From NCBI RefSeq assembly GCF_019720895.1, contig NZ_JAHKSH010000003.1:310001-374000 (forward strand): 64,000 nt of DNA, written 5' to 3'. Below the pieces are notes generated by a model that saw only the letters and a program-made list of their open reading frames with translations, did not search any database and was not told the origin of the DNA. Every line of letters starts with the position of its first letter. Positions within the stretch are counted from its first letter, which is position 1. The DNA comes from Microbacterium salitolerans (lineage in GTDB: Bacteria > Actinomycetota > Actinomycetes > Actinomycetales > Microbacteriaceae). Shown one piece after another: positions 41,592 to 50,816 of the stretch. The position numbers and the translations under genes were made by a program.

Positions 41592-41774
41592 CCCTTCGAT
41601 GGTGCGCGCACCTGTGCGAAATGCGCAACTTGGCCGTGATGAACTGACCCAATTGACAGGTAGCCGAAACATTCACGACGCACTGTGTGTCGAACGGGAG
41701 CGCTTGGCGCACTCGGCTCACCTCACCGCGGTGGCCGAGGGGGCAGCGGGTGCCGCGTTCATTAGGCTGTGCGG

Positions 41775-42485
41775 GTGACTTCCCCTTTCTCGGGCAGGCA
41801 GATGGCCAATCGCCAGGTGCTCGCCGATCACGTGCACGAGGAGCTGGTCGCGGCCCTGGTCGACGGTCGGTTCGAACCGGGGGCCGCCCTCTCGATCGAG
41901 GGGCTGGCGCGCGAACTCGGTGTCTCGCCGACGCCGGTGCGGGAGGCGCTGGCCCGCCTGGAGCACACGGGCATGGTGCGCCGCGCCGCCCTCAAGGGGT
42001 ACCGTGTCGCGCCGCTGTTCACGCCGGAGGAGCTGGGCCAGCTCGCGGAAGCGCGGAAGGTGATCGAGGAGGCGAATGCCGAGGCGACATGCCGGCGGGC
42101 GACCCCGGAGCTCATCGCCGCGCTCGCGGAGACGATCGAGCGGCTGAAGACGGCGCCGACGGGGCGCTCCTACAGCGAGTTCCGCGACTACTGGAAGGCC
42201 GACGAGGACTTCCATCGTCTGATCGCCGAGCACGCGGGCAATCCCTTCCTCCTCGGCGCCTACCGCACCCTCGGGGGCCAGGCGCAGCGGTTCCGTCTCT
42301 TCGGCGGACTGGGTGTCACGGACGCGGACAGCGCGATCGCCGAGCACACGGCGATCCTGAGTGCGCTCGAGCGCGGCGACGCCGAGGGGGCTCGCACCGC
42401 GATGGATGCGCACCTCGAAGGCGTGCGCCGTCGTGCGGTCGCGGATACCGCCACCAAGGGCGCGGAGTCGGACGACGTCATCTGA
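41775..42485 (+). CDS. GntR-family regulator, FadR/FCD type
   Basis: 236 residues from GTG at 41775, with TAGGCT (41763-41768) 6 nt upstream. N-terminal winged helix (L-A-R-E-L-G-V-S-P-T-P-V-R-E-A-L-A-R-L) and an FCD ligand domain, with D-E-D-F-H-R-L-I-A-E-H-A-G-N-P-F and A-I-A-E-H-T-A-I-L supplying Asp/His metal ligands. FCD regulators commonly sense sugar acids and other carboxylates. It is encoded immediately before, and on the same strand as, a six-gene catabolic operon whose promoter carries a matching palindrome. Confidence 0.88.
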   Translation: MTSPFSGRQMANRQVLADHVHEELVAALVDGRFEPGAALSIEGLARELGVSPTPVREALARLEHTGMVRRAALKGYRVAPLFTPEELGQLAEARKVIEEANAEATCRRATPELIAALAETIERLKTAPTGRSYSEFRDYWKADEDFHRLIAEHAGNPFLLGAYRTLGGQAQRFRLFGGLGVTDADSAIAEHTAILSALERGDAEGARTAMDAHLEGVRRRAVADTATKGAESDDVI

Positions 42486-42526: not shown

Positions 42527-42547
42527 GATCCTATAGGGAATAGGATC
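42527..42547. promoter_or_regulatory. operator of the GntR/FCD regulator at the sugar-acid operon promoter
   Basis: A perfect inverted repeat: GATCCTAT, five nucleotides (AGGGA), ATAGGATC. A canonical TTGACA lies at 42504-42509, so the palindrome covers the -10 region, 20 nt before the first structural gene's ATG at 42568. Confidence 0.75.
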
Positions 42548-42567
42548 TACGACGAAGTGGACGATGC

Positions 42568-43560
42568 ATGCCCTACACCGCCGACAACTGGCCCATCACT
42601 GCGGCGCTGCTGCAGTTCCCGCACGAGCTCCCGGGAGGGGGCACGATGCAGGACGCGGATCCGCAGCACTGGGTCGACGTGTTCCGCGAGGTGCGCGACG
42701 CGGGCTTCCGCGACGTCGACCTCTTCGACGGCTGGCTGCGCCCCGGCGACCTGAGCGCGACGCGACTCGACGAGCTCGCCGCGGCGACGCAGGAGGCGGG
42801 CGTCGGCGCTCCCGCGATCAGCGCCATCCGCCGCAGCGTCATCGACGCCGAGCACGCCGACGAGAACCTCGCCTACAGTCACCGCACGCTCGAGGCGGCG
42901 GCGCGGCTCGGGTGCGAGGTCGTGTCGTTCGGCCTCCACCAGCCGCTCACCGCCGAGCAGCAGAAGCAGCTGTGGTTCTGGACGGTCGAGGGCCACAAGG
43001 ATCCCCTCGGCGACGACGAGGTGCGCCGGACCGCCGTGTCGCGCCTTCGAGAGCTCGGCCAGCACGCGGCCGAGCTCGGCCTGCTCGTCTCGCTCGAGAT
43101 GTACGAGGACACCTTCCTCGGCACGGGAGAGTCGGCTGTGCGCATGGTGCAGGACATCGACCTGCCCAACGTGGGCCTCAACCCCGACCTCGGCAACCTC
43201 GTGCGTCTGCACCGGCCGATCGAGGACATCCACGAGCTCATCCGCACGACCATGCCGTACGCGAACTACTGGCACGTCAAGAACTACCTGCGCGATGAGA
43301 ACGTGGCCGGAGGGCTGTACGCGACGATGCCCGCGCCCCTCGAGACGGGCGTCATCAGCTATCGCGAGGCCGTCAGGGTCGCGCTCGCTCACGGCTTCCA
43401 GGGCATCATCTGCGCCGAGCACTACGGCGGTGACGGACTCTCCGTCTCGGCGACGAATCAGGAGTTCCTGCGCCGGCGGATCCTTCCTCAGACCGAGGAC
43501 TACGCGCTCGGCACTCCGCTCGTGGCGCAGGGGCGCCAGACGCCGACACCTCTCTCCTGA
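42568..43560 (+). CDS. xylose-isomerase-like TIM-barrel protein (sugar isomerase/epimerase or oxo-acid decarboxylase)
   Basis: 330 residues from ATG at 42568. A TIM-barrel of the AP-endonuclease-2/sugar-isomerase group, with likely divalent-metal ligands in S-L-E-M-Y-E-D, G-L-N-P-D-L-G-N, Y-W-H-V-K-N-Y and I-C-A-E-H-Y-G-G-D. Family members isomerise or epimerise sugars; some decarboxylate 3-oxo sugar acids (OiaC of the apiose pathway, as I recall). It is the first gene of the operon, 37 nt before the kinase. Given kinase and isomerases for C4 ketoses downstream, a decarboxylase making erythrulose is a reasonable but unproven guess. Confidence 0.75.
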   Translation: MPYTADNWPITAALLQFPHELPGGGTMQDADPQHWVDVFREVRDAGFRDVDLFDGWLRPGDLSATRLDELAAATQEAGVGAPAISAIRRSVIDAEHADENLAYSHRTLEAAARLGCEVVSFGLHQPLTAEQQKQLWFWTVEGHKDPLGDDEVRRTAVSRLRELGQHAAELGLLVSLEMYEDTFLGTGESAVRMVQDIDLPNVGLNPDLGNLVRLHRPIEDIHELIRTTMPYANYWHVKNYLRDENVAGGLYATMPAPLETGVISYREAVRVALAHGFQGIICAEHYGGDGLSVSATNQEFLRRRILPQTEDYALGTPLVAQGRQTPTPLS

Positions 43561-43597
43561 CCAGACGCCTTCGCCGACTCCTCGAGGGGCAGCAGAC

Positions 43598-45334
43598 ATG
43601 ACCCGACTGTTCGATGATCCGACCCAGTTCGCCGATGCCGCCATCGACGGCCTCGTCGCCGCGCACCGCCGCGTGCTCGCGCGCGTCGACGGCGGCGTGG
43701 TGCGCGCGACCGAGATGTCCGACGATCAGGTGGCCGTCGTGATCGGGGGAGGGTCGGGACACTATCCGGCGTTCGCGGGTCTCGTCGGGCCGGGCGGGGC
43801 GGCGGGCTCCGCGTGCGGAAACCTCTTCGCCTCGCCGTCGGCCGGCCAGGTCCACCGCGTGGCGACGGCGGCCGCGAACGGCGGCGGCGTCCTGCTCAGC
43901 TTCGGAAACTACGCCGGAGACGTGCTGCATTTCGGGCAGGCGCAGGAGCGCCTGAACGCGGAGGGCATCGAGACGCGCACGGTGCTCGTCACGGACGACA
44001 TCGCGAGCGCCCCCGCCGAGCGGATCGACGAGCGCCGCGGCATCGCCGGCGGGCTCGTCGTCTACAAGGTCGCCGGCGCCGCGAGCGAGGAGGGAGCGGA
44101 TCTCGATGAGGTCGAGCGCCTGGCGCGCAGGGCCAACGCCCGCACGCGCTCGCTCGGCGCCGCCTTCGACGGATGCACACTGCCCGGTGCCGACGACGCC
44201 CTGTTCCACGTGCCCGAGGGCAGGATGTCGCTCGGGCTCGGGATCCACGGCGAACCGGGCATCTCCGAGCACGACCTCCCGACCTCGTCCGAGCTGGCGG
44301 ACCTGCTGGTCGGCCGGCTGCTGGGGGAGATTCCGGAGGGGGCGGGCGCACGCGTGGTGCCGATCCTCAACGGGCTGGGCACCGTGAAGTATGAGGAGCT
44401 CTTCGTCCTGTTCGGCCACGTCGACCGGCTGCTCGCCGACGCCGGATACGAGGTCGTCGAGCCCGAGTGCGGCGAGTTCGTCACGAGCCTCGACATGGCG
44501 GGCGTCTCGCTCACGCTGTTCTGGGTCGACGACGAGCTCGAGCGCCTCTGGACGGCGCCCGCGGAGACGCCTGCGTTCCGTCGCGGCTTCGTCGCCGAGG
44601 GGAGGCGCCGCGCGTTCGAGACCGCCGCCGGCGACGAGACGGCCCAGGAGGATCCCACGGCCGCGTCGGCCGCCGCAGGAGAAGCCGCGGCCGAACTGAT
44701 CGAGGCGACGCGCGCCGTCGTCGAAGACCACGAGGACGAACTGGGCGAACTCGACGCGATCGCGGGCGATGGCGATCACGGCATCGGCATGCGCCGAGGG
44801 GCGGAGGCCGCCGCAGCCGCTGCACGCGCCGCAGCCGGGGTCACCGTCGCCGAGGTCTTCGTCGCGGCCGGAGACGCGTGGAGCGAGAAGGCGGGCGGCA
44901 CGTCCGGCGCTCTGTGGGGATCCGGTCTCGCCGCGGTGGGACGCGCGCTCGGCAATCGAGACGCCTACGCGGCAGACGACGCCGTCGTCGCCGCCGAGGC
45001 CTTCCGAGACGCGGTGGTCAGGCTCGGCGGGGCGGAGCTCGGCGACAAGACCATGGTCGACGCACTCGTGCCCTGGGCGGGCGCCGTCGCCGAGTCCGTC
45101 GCGGCCGGCGGATCCGTCGCCGACGCGCTCGCCGCGGGTGCCGATGCCGCCGCCGCCGCGGCCGTCGAGACCGCGGACCTCCTGCCGAAGAAGGGGCGCG
45201 CCCGCCCCCTCGCCGAGAAGTCACGGGGCCACCCCGACCCCGGTGCGCACTCGTTCGCGCTGATCGCACGCGGCGTGGCCGCGCGCTTCGGGGAGCTCGC
45301 CGATCGATCGAACCACGAGGGAGAGAAGCCATGA
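43598..45334 (+). CDS. DhaK-DhaL fused kinase, erythrulose/dihydroxyacetone kinase family
   Basis: 578 residues from ATG at 43598; the frame from 43295 overlaps the preceding gene and is rejected. The DhaK domain (1-335) has [10 protein letters not shown] and G-I-H-G-E-P-G, whose His forms the hemiaminal with the ketose. The DhaL domain (about 360-570) has [10 protein letters not shown], the Mg-ATP site. The ATP-dependent fused form, not the PTS form. In Mycobacterium such enzymes next to RpiB and TIM homologues are L- or D-erythrulose kinases (LerK, DerK). It overlaps the RpiB-like gene by ATGA. Confidence 0.9.
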
Positions 45335-45789
45335 GCGAGAAGTTCAGGATCATCGTCGGCAACGACGAGGCCGGCGTCGAGTACAAGAATGCGCTGAAGG
45401 CGCTGCTGGAGGCGGACGAGCGCGTCGAATCCGTGCTCGACGTGGGCGTCGGATCCGGCGACGGCACCGCCTACCCGCACGTCGCGGTCGCCGCGGCGCG
45501 CAAGGTCGCGGCGGGGGAGGCCGACCGGGCGCTGCTGATCTGCGGCACGGGCCTCGGCGTGGCGATCTCGGCGAACAAGGTGCCGGGGATCCGCGCCGTG
45601 ACCGCCCACGACGCGTACTCCGTCGAGCGATCCGTGCTCAGCAACGACGCGCAGGTGCTGACCTTCGGTCAGCGCGTGATCGGCCTGGAGCTCGCCAAGA
45701 AGCTCACGACCGAGTGGCTCGGCCATCGGTTCGACCCGACCAGCGCCTCCGCCGCCAAGGTGGACGCGATCTGCTCGTACGAGGCCTGA
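45331..45789 (+). CDS. RpiB/LacAB-family sugar-phosphate isomerase, probable D-erythrulose-4-phosphate isomerase (DerI-like)
   Basis: 152 residues from ATG at 45331, overlapping the kinase stop. Family hallmarks: G-N-D-E-A-G near the N-terminus (usually G-x-D-H-x-G; here Glu replaces the His), the catalytic Cys in [15 protein letters not shown], and A-H-D-A-Y-S. RpiB homologues beside erythrulose kinase convert D-erythrulose 4-phosphate to D-erythrose 4-phosphate, which enters the pentose phosphate pathway. The substrate is inferred from context. Confidence 0.88.
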
Positions 45790-45835
45790 GCGCCGCAGGC
45801 GCCCGGCACAGACACCCCATCGACAAGGACGTGGA

Positions 45836-46804
45836 ATGGACATCAAGGTCGCAATCATCGGATCCGGCTACATGGGCGGCGGCATCGGCCAGGTGCTCGC
45901 CCTCGCCGGCGCGCAGGTGGCTCTCGCGGACGCATCGGCGGACGTCGCGCGGAAGAACCTCGAGCGCCTGCTGACGGAGTCGGCTGACTTCGAGGCGCAG
46001 GGGCTGTTCCCCGCGGGGGCGACCGAGACGCTGACGCGCAACCTCTCCGCGGCCGGATCCCTCGAGGAGGCGGTCACGGGGGCCGCCTTCGTGGAGGAGG
46101 CCGTGCCGGAGATCCTCGATCTGAAGCAGGACATCCTGCGCCAGATCAGCGCCGCCGCGGCCCCCGACGCGATCATCGGATCGAACACGTCGACCATCTC
46201 GATTGCGGACATGGCGACCGCCGTCGAGCACCCCGAGCGCTTCCTCGGCGTGCATTTCTCGAACCCGTCGCCGTTCATCCCCGGCGTCGAGATCATTCCG
46301 CACGCGGCGACGAGCGAGGCGACGGTCGCCGCCGCACGCGCCTACGTGGAAGAGACCGGCAAGGAGACCGCCGTCGTCAAGGATGTGACGGGCTTCGTGC
46401 TGAACCGCCTGCAGTACGCGCTGTTCCACGAGGCCACCCAGCTCGTGGAAGAGGGCGTCGCCGACCCCGAGGACATCGACACGCTCGTGCGCACGACCTT
46501 CGGCTTCCGACTGCCGTTCTTCGGACCGTTCGTCATCGCCGACATGGCAGGGCTCGACGTCTACGACTTCTGCTACAAGTCGCTGCAGAAGGACTTCCCC
46601 GAGCGCTTCGCGACGCCGAAGATCCTCGCGGAGAAGATCGAGGAGGGCCGGCTCGGCACGAAGACCGGAGGCGGCTTCCTCGATGTGCCCGCCGACAAGC
46701 TCGCCGACCTCATCGCGTACCGCAACAAGGCCTACGTCGAGATGGGGCGGCTGCTGAAGGAGCTCGGGCCCGCGCCCGTCGCGGCCGACGACCGGGCGGA
46801 GTGA
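45836..46804 (+). CDS. 3-hydroxyacyl-CoA-dehydrogenase-like oxidoreductase (3-hydroxy acid / sugar-acid 3-dehydrogenase candidate)
   Basis: 322 residues from ATG at 45836 with AAGGACGTGG upstream. N-terminal NAD-binding fold (A-I-I-G-S-G-Y-M-G-G-G-I-G) and the 3HCDH C-terminal domain. Active-site pattern S-N-T-S-T-I-S and V-H-F-S-N-P-S-P-F, compared with H-F-F-N-P in true hydroxyacyl-CoA enzymes. The same family includes L-gulonate 3-dehydrogenase, which makes 3-oxo acids that decarboxylate. In this operon of sugar genes, a C5 sugar acid is a better substrate guess than an acyl-CoA. Confidence 0.8.
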   Translation: MDIKVAIIGSGYMGGGIGQVLALAGAQVALADASADVARKNLERLLTESADFEAQGLFPAGATETLTRNLSAAGSLEEAVTGAAFVEEAVPEILDLKQDILRQISAAAAPDAIIGSNTSTISIADMATAVEHPERFLGVHFSNPSPFIPGVEIIPHAATSEATVAAARAYVEETGKETAVVKDVTGFVLNRLQYALFHEATQLVEEGVADPEDIDTLVRTTFGFRLPFFGPFVIADMAGLDVYDFCYKSLQKDFPERFATPKILAEKIEEGRLGTKTGGGFLDVPADKLADLIAYRNKAYVEMGRLLKELGPAPVAADDRAE

Positions 46805-46811
46805 GCGCCGT

Positions 46812-47567
46812 ATGCCGTCACGTCCCCTGGTCATCGGCGTCAGCACGAAGATGTACCTGGGATACGCACGCTCCCTCGCGTGGCTGGATGGCGTGCGGCG
46901 AGAGCTCCTGAGTCGCCAGCTCGACGGCGTCGAGACCTTCGTCGCGCCGTCGTTTCCGCTCCTCGAGTCGGCGGCACGGATCCTCGACGAGACGGGATGC
47001 CGCATCGCCGCGCAGAACTGCGCCGGATTCGTCGGCATGGACCGGGCGGGCGGCGCCGCCACGGGCGAGGTGCCGGCCGGGATGCTCGCCGAGCTCGGGG
47101 TGCGGATCGTCGAGATCGGCCACGCCGAGCGCCGCGCGCTGTTCGGCGAGACGGACGAGGTCGTGGCGGCGAAGACGCGCGCCGCGCTCGCCGCCGGACT
47201 CACCCCGCTCCTGTGCATCGGCGAGACCGCTCACGGATCCCCAGAGGAGGCCGCCGCCGTCTGCCTCGCGCAGGCCGACGCGACGCTCGGCGACGCGGAT
47301 CCTGCGTCCGTCCTGTTCGCCTACGAGCCCGTCTGGGCGATCGGCGCGGCAGATCCCGCCGACCCCGCGCACGTCGGGGACGTCCTCGTGCGGATCCGGA
47401 CTCGACTCGCCCGCCGCTCGTCGGGAGCGGTGCGCATCATCTACGGCGGAAGCGCGCGTCCGGGCCTGCTTCCCCGCCTCCCGGAGGCGGACGGCCTGTT
47501 CCTGGGCCGATTCGCGCACGATCCGGTGAACTTCGGCGCCGTGCTCGACGACGCGCTCGCCGCCTGA
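46812..47567 (+). CDS. triosephosphate-isomerase-like protein, probable L-erythrulose-1-phosphate isomerase (LerI-like)
   Basis: 251 residues from ATG at 46812, 7 nt after the dehydrogenase. It has the TIM active site: Lys in S-T-K-M-Y-L, His in E-I-G-H-A-E-R-R and Glu in Y-E-P-V-W-A-I-G, with phosphate loop Y-G-G-S-A. The N-terminal N-x-K-M of glycolytic TpiA is altered to S-T-K-M. A second TIM in an operon with DAK and RpiB homologues is the marker of LerI, which interconverts L-erythrulose 1-phosphate and D-erythrulose 4-phosphate. Confidence 0.88.
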   Translation: MPSRPLVIGVSTKMYLGYARSLAWLDGVRRELLSRQLDGVETFVAPSFPLLESAARILDETGCRIAAQNCAGFVGMDRAGGAATGEVPAGMLAELGVRIVEIGHAERRALFGETDEVVAAKTRAALAAGLTPLLCIGETAHGSPEEAAAVCLAQADATLGDADPASVLFAYEPVWAIGAADPADPAHVGDVLVRIRTRLARRSSGAVRIIYGGSARPGLLPRLPEADGLFLGRFAHDPVNFGAVLDDALAA

Positions 47568-47587
47568 CCCCCTCGAAGGAGACCTGA

Positions 47588-49003
47588 ATGCTCTCGTCTG
47601 TCCTGCCCGCGGCGACGACGCCGCCGGAGGCCGCGCTTCCCGTCCCGGTGCTGCTGCTGATCGCGGTCGCCGCCATCGCAGTCCTGCTGTTCCTCATCAT
47701 GAAGGTGCGGCTGCACGCCTTCTTCTCGCTCATCATCGTGAGCCTGCTCACGGCCGTCGCGGCCGGCGTCACCGCCGACCAGCTGCTCGACACCATCGTC
47801 GGGCCGTTCGGTCGGACGCTCGGCGGCGTCGCGATGCTCGTCGGCTTCGGCGCCGTCCTCGGACGCATCGTCGAGACGTCGGGCGGGGCGCAGGTCATCA
47901 GCGACAAGCTCCTCGCCCTGTTCGGCGAGAAGCGCGCGCCGCTCGCGCTGTCCGTCGCGTCGCTGCTGTTCGGCTTCCCGATCTTCCTCGACGCCGGCTT
48001 CGTGGTGATGCTGCCGATCATCTACACCGTGGCACGGCGCATGGGCGGCGGGCTGCTGCTCTACGCGCTCCCCTCCGCCGGCGCGTTCCTCGTGATGCAC
48101 GGCCTCATGCCGCCCCACCCCGGTCCCGTCGCGGCGGCGGGCATCCTCGGCGCCGATGTCGGCATCGTCCTCATGGTGGGCCTGCTCGTCGGCCTGCCCA
48201 CCTGGTACCTCGCGGGGTATCGCCTCGCGCTCGTCCTCGCGAAGCGCAACCCGGGGATCCCCGTTCCGACGCTGCTCGGCGAGCCACCGAAGGACGACCC
48301 GAACCCGCCGAAGTTCGGCCTCGTGCTGCTCCTCCTCCTGCTGCCCCTCGTGCTGATCTTCCTCAACACGGGCCTGACGACGCTCCAGGCGACGGGGGCG
48401 ATCCCCGAGGACGCGGTGTGGGCGCAGGTCGCGATCTTCATCGGGAACACGCCGATCGCCCTGCTGATCTCCACGCTCCTGGCGATGTACTTCCTCGTGG
48501 TGCGCCGCCACGACGGCCCGATCGGCGGCGCCATCGAGAAGGTCGTCGACGACGCCCTCGCTCCGGTCTGCTCGATCATCCTCATCACGGGAGCCGGCGG
48601 CGTCTTCGGTGGGGTCCTCACGGCCACCGGCATCGGCACCGCGATGGCGGAGTCGCTGCAGGCCGTCGGGATGCCGCTGATCCTCGCCGCCTTCGTCATC
48701 GCGGTCATCATGCGCGTGGCGCAGGGATCCGCCACCGTCGCGGGCACGACGGCCGCGGGCCTCATGGCGCCGGCCGTCGCCGCCTCGGGTGAGCAGAGCC
48801 CCATCGCCCTCGCCTGCATCGTCATCGCGATCGCCTCGGGCGCCATCGGCTTCTCGCACGTCAACGACTCGGGGTTCTGGCTCGTCAGCCGCTTCCTCGA
48901 GATCTCGACGAAGCAGGCGCTCGGCACGTGGACCGTCATCTCGACCGCCATCGGCATCATGGGCTTCGCCCTCAGCTGGGTGGTCTACGCCCTGGCCAGC
49001 TGA
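47588..49003 (+). CDS. GntP-family permease (sugar acid:H+ symporter)
   Basis: 471 residues from ATG at 47588 behind GAAGGAGA. Twelve to fourteen hydrophobic helices with V-G-F-G-A-V-L-G-R-I-V-E-T-S-G-G-A-Q, H-G-L-M-P-P-H-P-G-P-V and the C-terminal H-V-N-D-S-G-F-W, marks of the gluconate permease family. The family carries gluconate, D-serine and other hydroxy acids, so the operon substrate should be a carboxylic sugar acid rather than a polyol. It is the last gene of the operon. Confidence 0.9.
   Translation: MLSSVLPAATTPPEAALPVPVLLLIAVAAIAVLLFLIMKVRLHAFFSLIIVSLLTAVAAGVTADQLLDTIVGPFGRTLGGVAMLVGFGAVLGRIVETSGGAQVISDKLLALFGEKRAPLALSVASLLFGFPIFLDAGFVVMLPIIYTVARRMGGGLLLYALPSAGAFLVMHGLMPPHPGPVAAAGILGADVGIVLMVGLLVGLPTWYLAGYRLALVLAKRNPGIPVPTLLGEPPKDDPNPPKFGLVLLLLLLPLVLIFLNTGLTTLQATGAIPEDAVWAQVAIFIGNTPIALLISTLLAMYFLVVRRHDGPIGGAIEKVVDDALAPVCSIILITGAGGVFGGVLTATGIGTAMAESLQAVGMPLILAAFVIAVIMRVAQGSATVAGTTAAGLMAPAVAASGEQSPIALACIVIAIASGAIGFSHVNDSGFWLVSRFLEISTKQALGTWTVISTAIGIMGFALSWVVYALAS

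Positions 49004-49043: not shown

Positions 49044-50816
<1,773 letters not shown>

What the first reader, a model, noticed from the sequence alone, without database searches (positions are those of the whole stretch)
42527..49003. Possible new sugar-acid catabolic operon leading through erythrulose to D-erythrose 4-phosphate
Six co-directional genes follow an FCD-type GntR gene and a perfect palindromic operator: sugar-isomerase-like TIM barrel, DhaK-DhaL kinase, RpiB-like, 3HCDH-like dehydrogenase, TIM-like, GntP permease. The DAK/TIM/RpiB trio is the known signature of erythrulose catabolism in mycobacteria (LerK/LerI/DerI). A GntP permease and a gulonate-3-dehydrogenase-like oxidoreductase imply that the starting compound is an acid. 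Proposed order: C5 sugar acid, 3-oxo acid, decarboxylation by the TIM-barrel protein, erythrulose, erythrulose phosphate, D-erythrose 4-phosphate. The apiose pathways (OiaC) offer a precedent for such a decarboxylase. The dehydrogenase family used here and the absence of a DUF1537 kinase, class II aldolase or RuBisCO-like protein make this combination unusual to me.
Basis: partly seen in the sequence, partly recalled or inferred. Interest (0 to 1): 0.7.

Follow-up and report, generated by a model that had tools for sequence, protein, structure and literature searches.

The report
Sugar-acid operon feeding erythrulose
A bacterial gene set that most likely imports a five-carbon sugar acid, oxidises it, splits off carbon dioxide to make the four-carbon sugar erythrulose, and feeds that into central metabolism; related bacteria appear to run the same scheme with different, unrelated oxidising enzymes.

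Summary
In detail: a GntR/FCD gene, an 8+5+8 palindrome and six co-directional genes (AP_endonuc_2 TIM barrel 'TIMx', DhaK-DhaL kinase, RpiB-like, 3HCDH dehydrogenase, TPI-like, GntP permease). It is not a one-off: TIMx is in 65 of 248 sampled genomes of the window's order. All 65 carry the same kinase family (18 of 183 without TIMx do); 56 carry the dehydrogenase (1 of 183). The family of Kushneria repeats this (20 of 20 against 15 of 101), with the kinase far from TIMx in 17 of 20. So TIMx goes with an erythrulose-type kinase. Where the 3HCDH gene is missing, PdxA or a beta-hydroxyacid dehydrogenase was found in 6 of 9 genomes of the order and 5 of 5 read in the other family. The window's genome also holds a separate candidate apionate cluster with its own kinase/RpiB/TPI-like trio and candidate OiaC; TIMx is not its ortholog. 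Best reading: acid, 3-oxo acid, CO2 plus erythrulose, D-erythrose 4-phosphate, probably from an L-configured C5 acid because a LerI-like isomerase is present. Substrate and the TIMx reaction are inferred; nearest characterised folds are epimerases. New variant of a known kind.

The parts
41769..42485 (+). GntR-family regulator with FCD ligand domain; likely local regulator
   Evidence: Pfam GntR 56.1 bits, FCD 106.3 bits; orthologs near TIMx in most of the Micrococcaceae loci
42527..42547 (.). Palindrome GATCCTAT-N5-ATAGGATC; the conserved core is TCCTATAGGR at 42529-42538, likely GntR operator
42568..43560 (+). TIMx: xylose-isomerase-like TIM barrel, probably metal-dependent; proposed 3-oxo-acid decarboxylase
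   Evidence: AP_endonuc_2 95.9 bits; only strong PDB relative is 5TNV, with Mg; E177, D207, E284 in 33 of 33 and H236 in 31 of 33 aligned rows
43598..45334 (+). DhaK-DhaL fused kinase, LerK-like (proposed erythrulose kinase)
   Evidence: Dak1 359.9 and Dak2 148.7 bits; PRK14479 subfamily met, glycerone kinase cut-off not met (339 of 575); groups with tetritol- and apionate-locus kinases, apart from glycerol-type ones
45331..45789 (+). RpiB-like isomerase, DerI-like (proposed D-erythrulose-4-P to D-erythrose-4-P)
   Evidence: LacAB_rpiB 148.9 bits; TIGR02133 195.3 over cut-off 168.2, rhizobial DerI model 150.3 under cut-off 240
45836..46804 (+). 3-hydroxyacyl-CoA-dehydrogenase-family oxidoreductase (proposed sugar-acid 3-dehydrogenase)
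   Evidence: 3HCDH_N 169.3, 3HCDH 83.4 bits; no NCBIfam cut-off reached; operon members form one clade in a 32-row tree, support 96
46812..47567 (+). TPI-like isomerase, LerI-like (proposed L-erythrulose-1-P to D-erythrulose-4-P)
   Evidence: TIM 172.6 bits; below all TPI cut-offs; GVSTKMY in place of the GNWKMN of the genome's pgk-linked TPI
47588..49003 (+). GntP-family permease (sugar acid:H+ symporter type)
   Evidence: GntP_permease 386.2 bits; TIGR00791 gntP 354.7 over cut-off 292.75
49050..49063 (+). Weak terminator-like hairpin after the operon, at chance level
   Evidence: 1 found against 1.2 expected

Best explanation
A GntR-controlled catabolic operon for a C5 sugar acid. GntP imports the acid; the 3HCDH-family enzyme oxidises the hydroxyl at C3 to a 3-oxo acid; the TIM barrel removes CO2 to give erythrulose; the DAK-type kinase makes erythrulose 1-phosphate; the LerI-like TPI paralog converts it to D-erythrulose 4-phosphate; the DerI-like RpiB makes D-erythrose 4-phosphate for the pentose phosphate pathway. 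Because a LerI-like isomerase is present, the product is most likely L-erythrulose, so the acid should be L-configured at C4 (L-arabinonate, L-xylonate, L-lyxonate or L-ribonate) or a branched acid that yields L-erythrulose (isoapionate). Shown here: gene content, conservation, co-occurrence with the kinase, exchange of the dehydrogenase, kinship of the kinase with tetritol-locus kinases. Inferred: every reaction, the substrate, the stereochemistry.
For: TIMx-positive genomes carry the kinase in 65 of 65 against 18 of 183 (order sample) and 20 of 20 against 15 of 101 (family of Kushneria). In 8 of 8 genomes chosen because TIMx-HCDH had no kinase beside it, kinase and RpiB are elsewhere; in the four non-fragmentary loci of these that I read (L151-L153, L156) they share the stretch with a SorC-type sugar-binding regulator and a Zn-alcohol dehydrogenase (Pfam for the regulators; for the dehydrogenase of L152 and L156; L151 and L153 by NCBIfam kin) and an importer (ABC in L151, L153, L156; TRAP type in L152), the make-up of tetritol loci. 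HCDH in 56 of 65 against 1 of 183. Dehydrogenase swapped for PdxA or beta-hydroxyacid dehydrogenase. Kinases of TIMx, apionate and tetritol loci intermix apart from glycerol-type kinases. The own genome's candidate apionate cluster has the same logic: oxidoreductase, TIM barrel, trio. Profile comparison of TIMx with the candidate OiaC: 95.9% probability, metal ligands aligned. LerI/DerI/LerK reactions: PMC10733421, passages seen.
Against: No substrate or activity data. Nearest characterised folds to TIMx are ketose and ketose-phosphate 3-epimerases. PdxA enzymes can decarboxylate by themselves (recalled), so TIMx could do something else in PdxA operons. 5 of 35 TIMx clusters show none of the three dehydrogenases within 9.5 kb, and 3 of 9 HCDH-less genomes of the order sample show none or could not be read. 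RpiB scores below the one DerI model that matched. Kinase lies within 20 kb of TIMx in 50 of 68 copies, not all. Co-occurrence counts are not phylogenetically independent.
Confidence: 0.5

Rival explanations
1. Same route to erythrulose, but TIMx is an epimerase or isomerase (of the 3-oxo acid or of erythrulose); the 3-oxo acid loses CO2 spontaneously or on the dehydrogenase.
For: Closest characterised folds include UlaE, D-psicose and D-tagatose 3-epimerases; weak NCBIfam hits are L-ribulose-5-P and D-psicose epimerases; PdxA-type partners can decarboxylate themselves (recalled).
Against: With a LerI-like isomerase present neither erythrulose enantiomer needs a separate epimerase, yet TIMx is kept both with and without it. 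TIMx stays with the dehydrogenase when the kinase is elsewhere (Kushneria).
Confidence: 0.22
2. C4 acid route: tetronate, 3-oxo-tetronate, dihydroxyacetone, then kinase to DHAP and TPI to glyceraldehyde 3-phosphate.
For: Three steps need only HCDH, TIMx and kinase; three of the swapped-in beta-hydroxyacid dehydrogenases score best with the L-threonate dehydrogenase model (217-239 bits, cut-off 350); a DUF1537-type kinase (Pfam SBD_N + NBD_C in L116) and a beta-hydroxyacid dehydrogenase (L117) follow TIMx-HCDH-SDR-MFS in L116 and L117.
Against: Leaves RpiB unexplained although it is in 24 of 26 kinase-bearing clusters; kinase groups with tetritol-locus kinases; the TPI-like protein differs from the genome's own pgk-linked TPI at the GNWKMN motif.
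Confidence: 0.13
3. The acid is a C6 or longer aldonate, giving a pentulose; the trio serves another substrate of the same regulon.
For: Lambda-crystallin, which is L-gulonate 3-dehydrogenase (recalled), is among the PDB relatives of HCDH.
Against: No pentulokinase gene in the operon; steady co-occurrence with the tetrulose-type kinase in two phyla.
Confidence: 0.06
4. Acyl-CoA or unrelated metabolism: HCDH is a hydroxyacyl-CoA dehydrogenase and the neighbours are coincidental.
For: 3HCDH family name.
Against: HCDH forms its own clade and occurs in 56 of 65 TIMx genomes against 1 of 183 others.
Confidence: 0.03

Closest known systems
D-apiose/D-apionate catabolism through OiaC (Carter et al. 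2018; not held; recalled; cited in PMC6302742, passages)
   Same: Recalled: 3-oxo-isoapionate is decarboxylated by OiaC to L-erythrulose, then LerK/LerI/DerI-type steps. The candidate OiaC of this genome is of the same AP_endonuc_2 family with aligned metal ligands.
   Different: No ApnL or ApnO here; HCDH instead of the PGDH_C-type oxidoreductase; TIMx is 330 aa and shares 27% over 98 aa with the candidate OiaC, which sits in its own cluster L177.
Tetritol/erythrulose pathways (LerK, LerI, DerI; M. smegmatis and Brucella, recalled; reactions in PMC10733421, passages)
   Same: Kinase, TPI-like and RpiB-like families; they occur in tetritol-type loci of genomes that carry TIMx-HCDH without a kinase beside it.
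   Different: No tetritol dehydrogenase or tetritol importer; input is an acid through GntP, with a dehydrogenase and TIMx added.
L-gulonate 3-dehydrogenase and 3-dehydro-L-gulonate decarboxylation (recalled)
   Same: Logic: oxidise C3 of an aldonate, lose CO2, get a ketose.
   Different: Different chain length, decarboxylase family and downstream steps.
Four-carbon acid sugar pathways (LtnD, OtnI, DUF1537 kinase, class II aldolase; PdxA2; recalled, paper not held)
   Same: Some TIMx loci use the same dehydrogenase families (beta-HAD, PdxA).
   Different: Window operon has no DUF1537 kinase or class II aldolase; it uses DAK, RpiB and TPI-like enzymes.
PDB 5TNV, M. smegmatis xylose-isomerase-like TIM barrel with Mg
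   Same: 44% identity to TIMx; 91% over 298 residues to the TIMx of L129, which lies in a TPI-RpiB-DAK/GntR/TIMx-HCDH-GntP locus.
   Different: Its title assigns no function; no paper in the held library names it.

Membership tests
LerK/LerI/DerI erythrulose module | DAK-type kinase of the tetritol-locus lineage | tested here: met
   Tree of 41 kinases: window kinase within the 38 non-glycerol rows, together with tetritol- and apionate-locus kinases; the reference LerK sequence itself was not on hand
LerK/LerI/DerI erythrulose module | TPI paralog that is not the housekeeping TPI | tested here: met
   GVSTKMY and IGHAERR against GNWKMN and IGHSERR in the pgk-linked TPI of the same genome; K/H/E catalytic residues kept
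LerK/LerI/DerI erythrulose module | RpiB-like DerI | tested here: inconclusive
   TIGR02133 met (195.3 over 168.2), as are two broad RpiB subfamilies; NF051858 rhizobial DerI not met (150.3 under 240), but the RpiB of a tetritol-type locus also fails it (145.8)
LerK/LerI/DerI erythrulose module | Activity on erythrulose and its phosphates | not testable with these tools
   needs enzymes
OiaC 3-oxo-isoapionate decarboxylase | TIMx orthologous to OiaC | tested here: not met
   BLASTP 25.8 bits, 27% over 98 aa to the candidate OiaC of the same genome; that candidate is assigned by its neighbours, not by a reference sequence
OiaC 3-oxo-isoapionate decarboxylase | ApnL and ApnO in the operon | tested here: not met
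   absent among the 7 gene products; candidates are in L177
L-gulonate 3-dehydrogenase / 3HCDH sugar-acid dehydrogenases | 3HCDH_N + 3HCDH domains | tested here: met
L-gulonate 3-dehydrogenase / 3HCDH sugar-acid dehydrogenases | Oxidation of a free hydroxy acid | not testable with these tools
   no NCBIfam cut-off reached by HCDH
DUF1537 four-carbon acid sugar pathway | DUF1537 kinase and class II aldolase | tested here: not met
   none among the 7 window proteins scanned
Ketose 3-epimerase family | Curated epimerase cut-off | tested here: not met
   PRK13210 25.6 of 200, PsicseEpim 20 of 300; fold similar

The most novel reading that the evidence does not exclude
A widespread route for sugar acids, not found in the papers searched: beta-oxidation of the acid by any of three unrelated dehydrogenases (3HCDH, PdxA, beta-HAD), decarboxylation by a TIM-barrel family that is not OiaC, and entry as a tetrulose. 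The presence or absence of a LerI-like isomerase tells the handedness of the acid: permease-fed operons (LerI mostly present) take L-acids, and glycoside-linked operons with GH3, GH51 or ThuA-type genes (LerI-like gene in 0 of 8 against 15 of 18) take D-acids such as D-xylonate released from oxidised or acid-capped plant oligosaccharides.
Probability: 0.3. Interest if true: 0.78.

Novelty: new variant of a known kind. Interest (0 to 1): 0.55.

Why it matters
It would assign a function to a solved structure that carries none in its title (5TNV), and re-label genes now named triose-phosphate isomerase, ribose-5-phosphate isomerase, dihydroxyacetone kinase and hydroxyacyl-CoA dehydrogenase in many actinobacteria, halophilic gammaproteobacteria and rhizobia. 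It would add a redox-linked decarboxylation entry into erythrose 4-phosphate. Gene content gives direct predictions about substrate handedness that a bench group can test with a handful of aldonates.

Tried and rejected
Housekeeping TPI: rejected, the genome has a separate pgk-linked TPI with the classical motif. TIMx as OiaC: rejected, though the superfamily is shared. Plain dihydroxyacetone kinase: glycerone kinase cut-off not reached and a separate lineage of glycerol-type kinases exists (of its three glycerol-type rows one is a 215-aa piece). Perfect palindrome as the operator: replaced by the conserved core. Plasmid search with HCDH at E 1e-60 gave only one Arthrobacter record. Promoter scan: none found. 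Literature: ten searches listed no paper that I recognised as describing this gene combination; the library lacks most subscription journals, and the three key papers (apiose, tetritol, DUF1537) are not held, so what I say of them is recalled. PMC10733421, PMC6225978 and PMC6302742 were seen as passages only; the rest as listings. PMC6225978 was looked at for L-xylonate/L-lyxonate from ascorbate; it gave 2-oxo-L-threo-pentonate, no support for a substrate, and is not used. The glycoside/LerI association was formed after seeing the loci; L031, with GH3 and an ABC importer upstream of a divergent GntR gene and with a TPI-like gene, was counted as not glycoside-linked, and the three kinase-bearing clusters without TPI on that side are L052 (short flank), L111 (TPI not sought elsewhere) and L164. 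Fetched but gene maps not displayed: L157, L158, L168, L185, L189 (the last two used only, L168); of the 80 loci I displayed maps of L031, L040, L050, L058, L064, L092, L094, L101 and L110, the others only through the seven anchor proteins. Many neighbour names are read by eye; those checked by Pfam or NCBIfam are.
Full report
WHAT IS THERE. The window carries a GntR/FCD gene, a palindrome and six co-directional genes at the stated places. Kinase and RpiB overlap by four bases; gaps between the other genes are 7 to 46 bases (from the coordinates). NCBIfam cut-offs are met only by the kinase (PRK14479), RpiB (TIGR02133 and two broad RpiB subfamilies) and GntP (TIGR00791); the dehydrogenase, TIMx, the TPI-like protein and the regulator meet none.

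HOW COMMON. One scan of genome contigs with TIMx kept 80 loci (of 150 confirmed): 73 Micrococcaceae, 5 Kushneria, one Salinisphaera and one Actinomycetota MAG. The full set TIMx-DAK-RpiB-HCDH-TPI-GntP in window order is in L031-L034 and L036; the two largest TIMx clusters (L037, 16 copies; L042, 46 copies) have SDR and MFS genes where the window has GntP. In a phylum-wide sample 4 of 396 genomes had TIMx, the window's own included; in the order, 65 of 248, again with its own.

CO-OCCURRENCE. In the order sample the kinase (E <= 1e-100) is in 65 of 65 TIMx genomes and 18 of 183 others; HCDH (E <= 1e-70) in 56 of 65 and 1 of 183. In 121 genomes of the family of a Kushneria genome: kinase 20 of 20 against 15 of 101, HCDH 13 of 20 against 0 of 101. 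These genomes are related to each other, so the Fisher values printed there overstate; the two samples lie in different phyla. The link does not need adjacency: of 68 TIMx copies in the order sample 50 have the kinase and 52 HCDH within 20 kb; in the Kushneria family only 3 of 20 have the kinase within 20 kb (coordinates). In 8 of 8 genomes picked for lacking a kinase beside TIMx-HCDH, kinase and RpiB exist elsewhere. I read six of those loci (L151-L156). Two Kushneria and the Salinisphaera locus have the full trio, a SorC-type regulator, a Zn-alcohol dehydrogenase and an importer (ABC in L151 and L153, TRAP type in L152); G041 (L156) has kinase and RpiB with regulator, Zn-alcohol dehydrogenase and ABC genes but no TPI in the stretch; the MAG has the pieces on contig ends (Pfam and NCBIfam checks). 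This is the make-up of tetritol loci (recalled), where the trio makes D-erythrose 4-phosphate from erythrulose (LerK, LerI, DerI; PMC10733421, passages).

TRIO IDENTITY. In a tree of 41 kinases the rows from TIMx, apionate-type and tetritol-type loci mix, and three glycerol-type paralogs stand apart (SH-aLRT 98). The TPI-like proteins have Ser (21) or Gly (2) at the first site where the genome's own pgk-linked TPI has Asn (23 rows with letters there; GVSTKMY in the window against GNWKMN), while Lys stays in those 23 rows and His and Glu of the active site in all 27. RpiB is in 24 and the TPI-like gene in 15 of 26 kinase-bearing TIMx clusters.

THE DEHYDROGENASE IS EXCHANGEABLE. At 80% identity 121 TIMx copies (some loci fetched twice) fall into 35 clusters; 30 have HCDH, PdxA or a beta-hydroxyacid dehydrogenase within 9.5 kb: HCDH alone 21, PdxA alone 3, beta-HAD alone 3, PdxA with beta-HAD 2, HCDH with beta-HAD 1, none 5 (the clusters predate L183-L189). 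S. meliloti pSymB (L112) has GntR, PdxA, tripartite tricarboxylate transporter, TIMx, kinase (annotation). An actinobacterium (L159) has the transporter, TIMx, kinase, RpiB, PdxA, TPI-like. Of the 7 HCDH-less members of the Kushneria family 5 were fetched, and 5 of 5 have PdxA, the transporter and a homolog of a DRL_cat protein (Pfam on L186). Among the nine HCDH-less genomes of the order sample six show one of the two replacements: PdxA in L159; beta-HAD with PdxA 6-9 kb off in L161 and L162; beta-HAD in L163 and L160, and 4-5 kb from TIMx in L165, whose genome has a second TIMx (L164) beside only a D-2-hydroxyacid-dehydrogenase-type gene. L166 and L167 show only an SDR, and one contig (L168) is too short to tell. 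The three families are unrelated but known members oxidise a hydroxyl beta to a carboxyl or carboxyl-derived group (recalled). What stays is TIMx and the tetrulose-type kinase. That points to TIMx acting on the common product, a 3-oxo acid, and giving the kinase its substrate.

COMPARISON WITHIN THE SAME GENOME. Contig C5 of the window's genome (L177) holds a GntR/FCD gene, GntP, its own kinase-RpiB-TPI-like trio, a 264-aa AP_endonuc_2 protein, a PGDH_C-type oxidoreductase, an SDR, a protein whose only NCBIfam match is D-apionate lactonase (202 bits, cut-off 750, so below it) and a nucleoside-hydrolase-like protein. I take this as a candidate apionate cluster with a candidate OiaC. TIMx and that protein share 27% over 98 residues, but profiles align at 95.9% with the metal ligands E177/D207/H236/E284 against E132/D159/H185/E233 (that these are metal ligands is by analogy with ketose epimerases, recalled). 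So the two operons look like parallel solutions: make a 3-oxo acid, use a TIM barrel, feed the trio.

TIMx ITSELF. The AlphaFold2 model has mean pLDDT 95.3; Foldseek finds 5TNV first (44% identity), then Art22, UlaE and other ketose or ketose-phosphate epimerases and isomerases. E177, D207, N210, R213, W235, K238, Y240 and E284 are identical in 33 of 33 rows, H236 in 31. Invariant Arg and Lys near a metal site suit an anionic substrate, but do not separate decarboxylase from epimerase.

STEREOCHEMISTRY. Losing C1 from a 3-oxo pentonate keeps C4 as the only stereocentre of the erythrulose; L-acids give L-erythrulose, which needs LerI, and D-acids give D-erythrulose, which does not (chemistry). 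The window has the LerI-like gene, hence the prediction of an L-acid. Across kinase-bearing clusters, eight glycoside-linked ones (GH3, GH51 or ThuA-type neighbours) have the TPI-like gene in 0 of 8, the others in 15 of 18. This was seen first and counted afterwards, one locus (L031) is arguable, and LerI elsewhere in those genomes was not sought.

REGULATION. TCCTATAGGA lies within 200 bp upstream of TIMx in 57 of 57 loci with the orthologous GntR gene near it, in 10 of 23 without. The window differs by one base.

LIMITS. No activity, substrate or expression data. First-look limits of the genome search can miss weak copies. The reference sequences of OiaC, LerK, LerI and DerI were not on hand.

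Noticed in passing
L177 (own genome G000:C5:270001-289000): Separate candidate D-apionate cluster with its own kinase/RpiB/TPI-like trio, ApnL-like, PGDH_C oxidoreductase, short TIM barrel, GntP and a nucleoside-hydrolase-like protein.
   Followed up: partly
L180 (G510:C1:4464001-4483000): A third kinase-RpiB locus with an AP_endonuc_2 protein nearest IolE, an SDR, an MFS gene and what looks like a transketolase split into two genes (one half scanned); substrate unclear.
   Followed up: partly
L186:5345-6796 with homologs in L183-L185 and L189; L165:4516-5892: DRL_cat oxidoreductase directly upstream of TIMx in PdxA-type operons of the Kushneria family, and 2 kb before TIMx in L165. DRL is a DXR-like enzyme (recalled) that rearranges carbon skeletons, so a branched acid is conceivable.
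   Followed up: partly
L116, L117: A beta-hydroxyacid dehydrogenase and a DUF1537-type kinase follow TIMx-HCDH-SDR-MFS in the same direction.
   Followed up: partly
L058, L064, L094: TIMx-DAK-RpiB-HCDH directly downstream of an ABC importer, Gfo/Idh, AP_endonuc_2, ThuA and Gfo/Idh genes, which suggests a glycoside source of the acid.
   Followed up: partly
L110 (Salinisphaera): TIMx-HCDH followed by aldose 1-epimerase, a sugar ABC importer, a small gluconokinase-like gene (named by eye) and an SMP-30 lactonase: looks like entry from an aldose through its lactone.
   Followed up: partly
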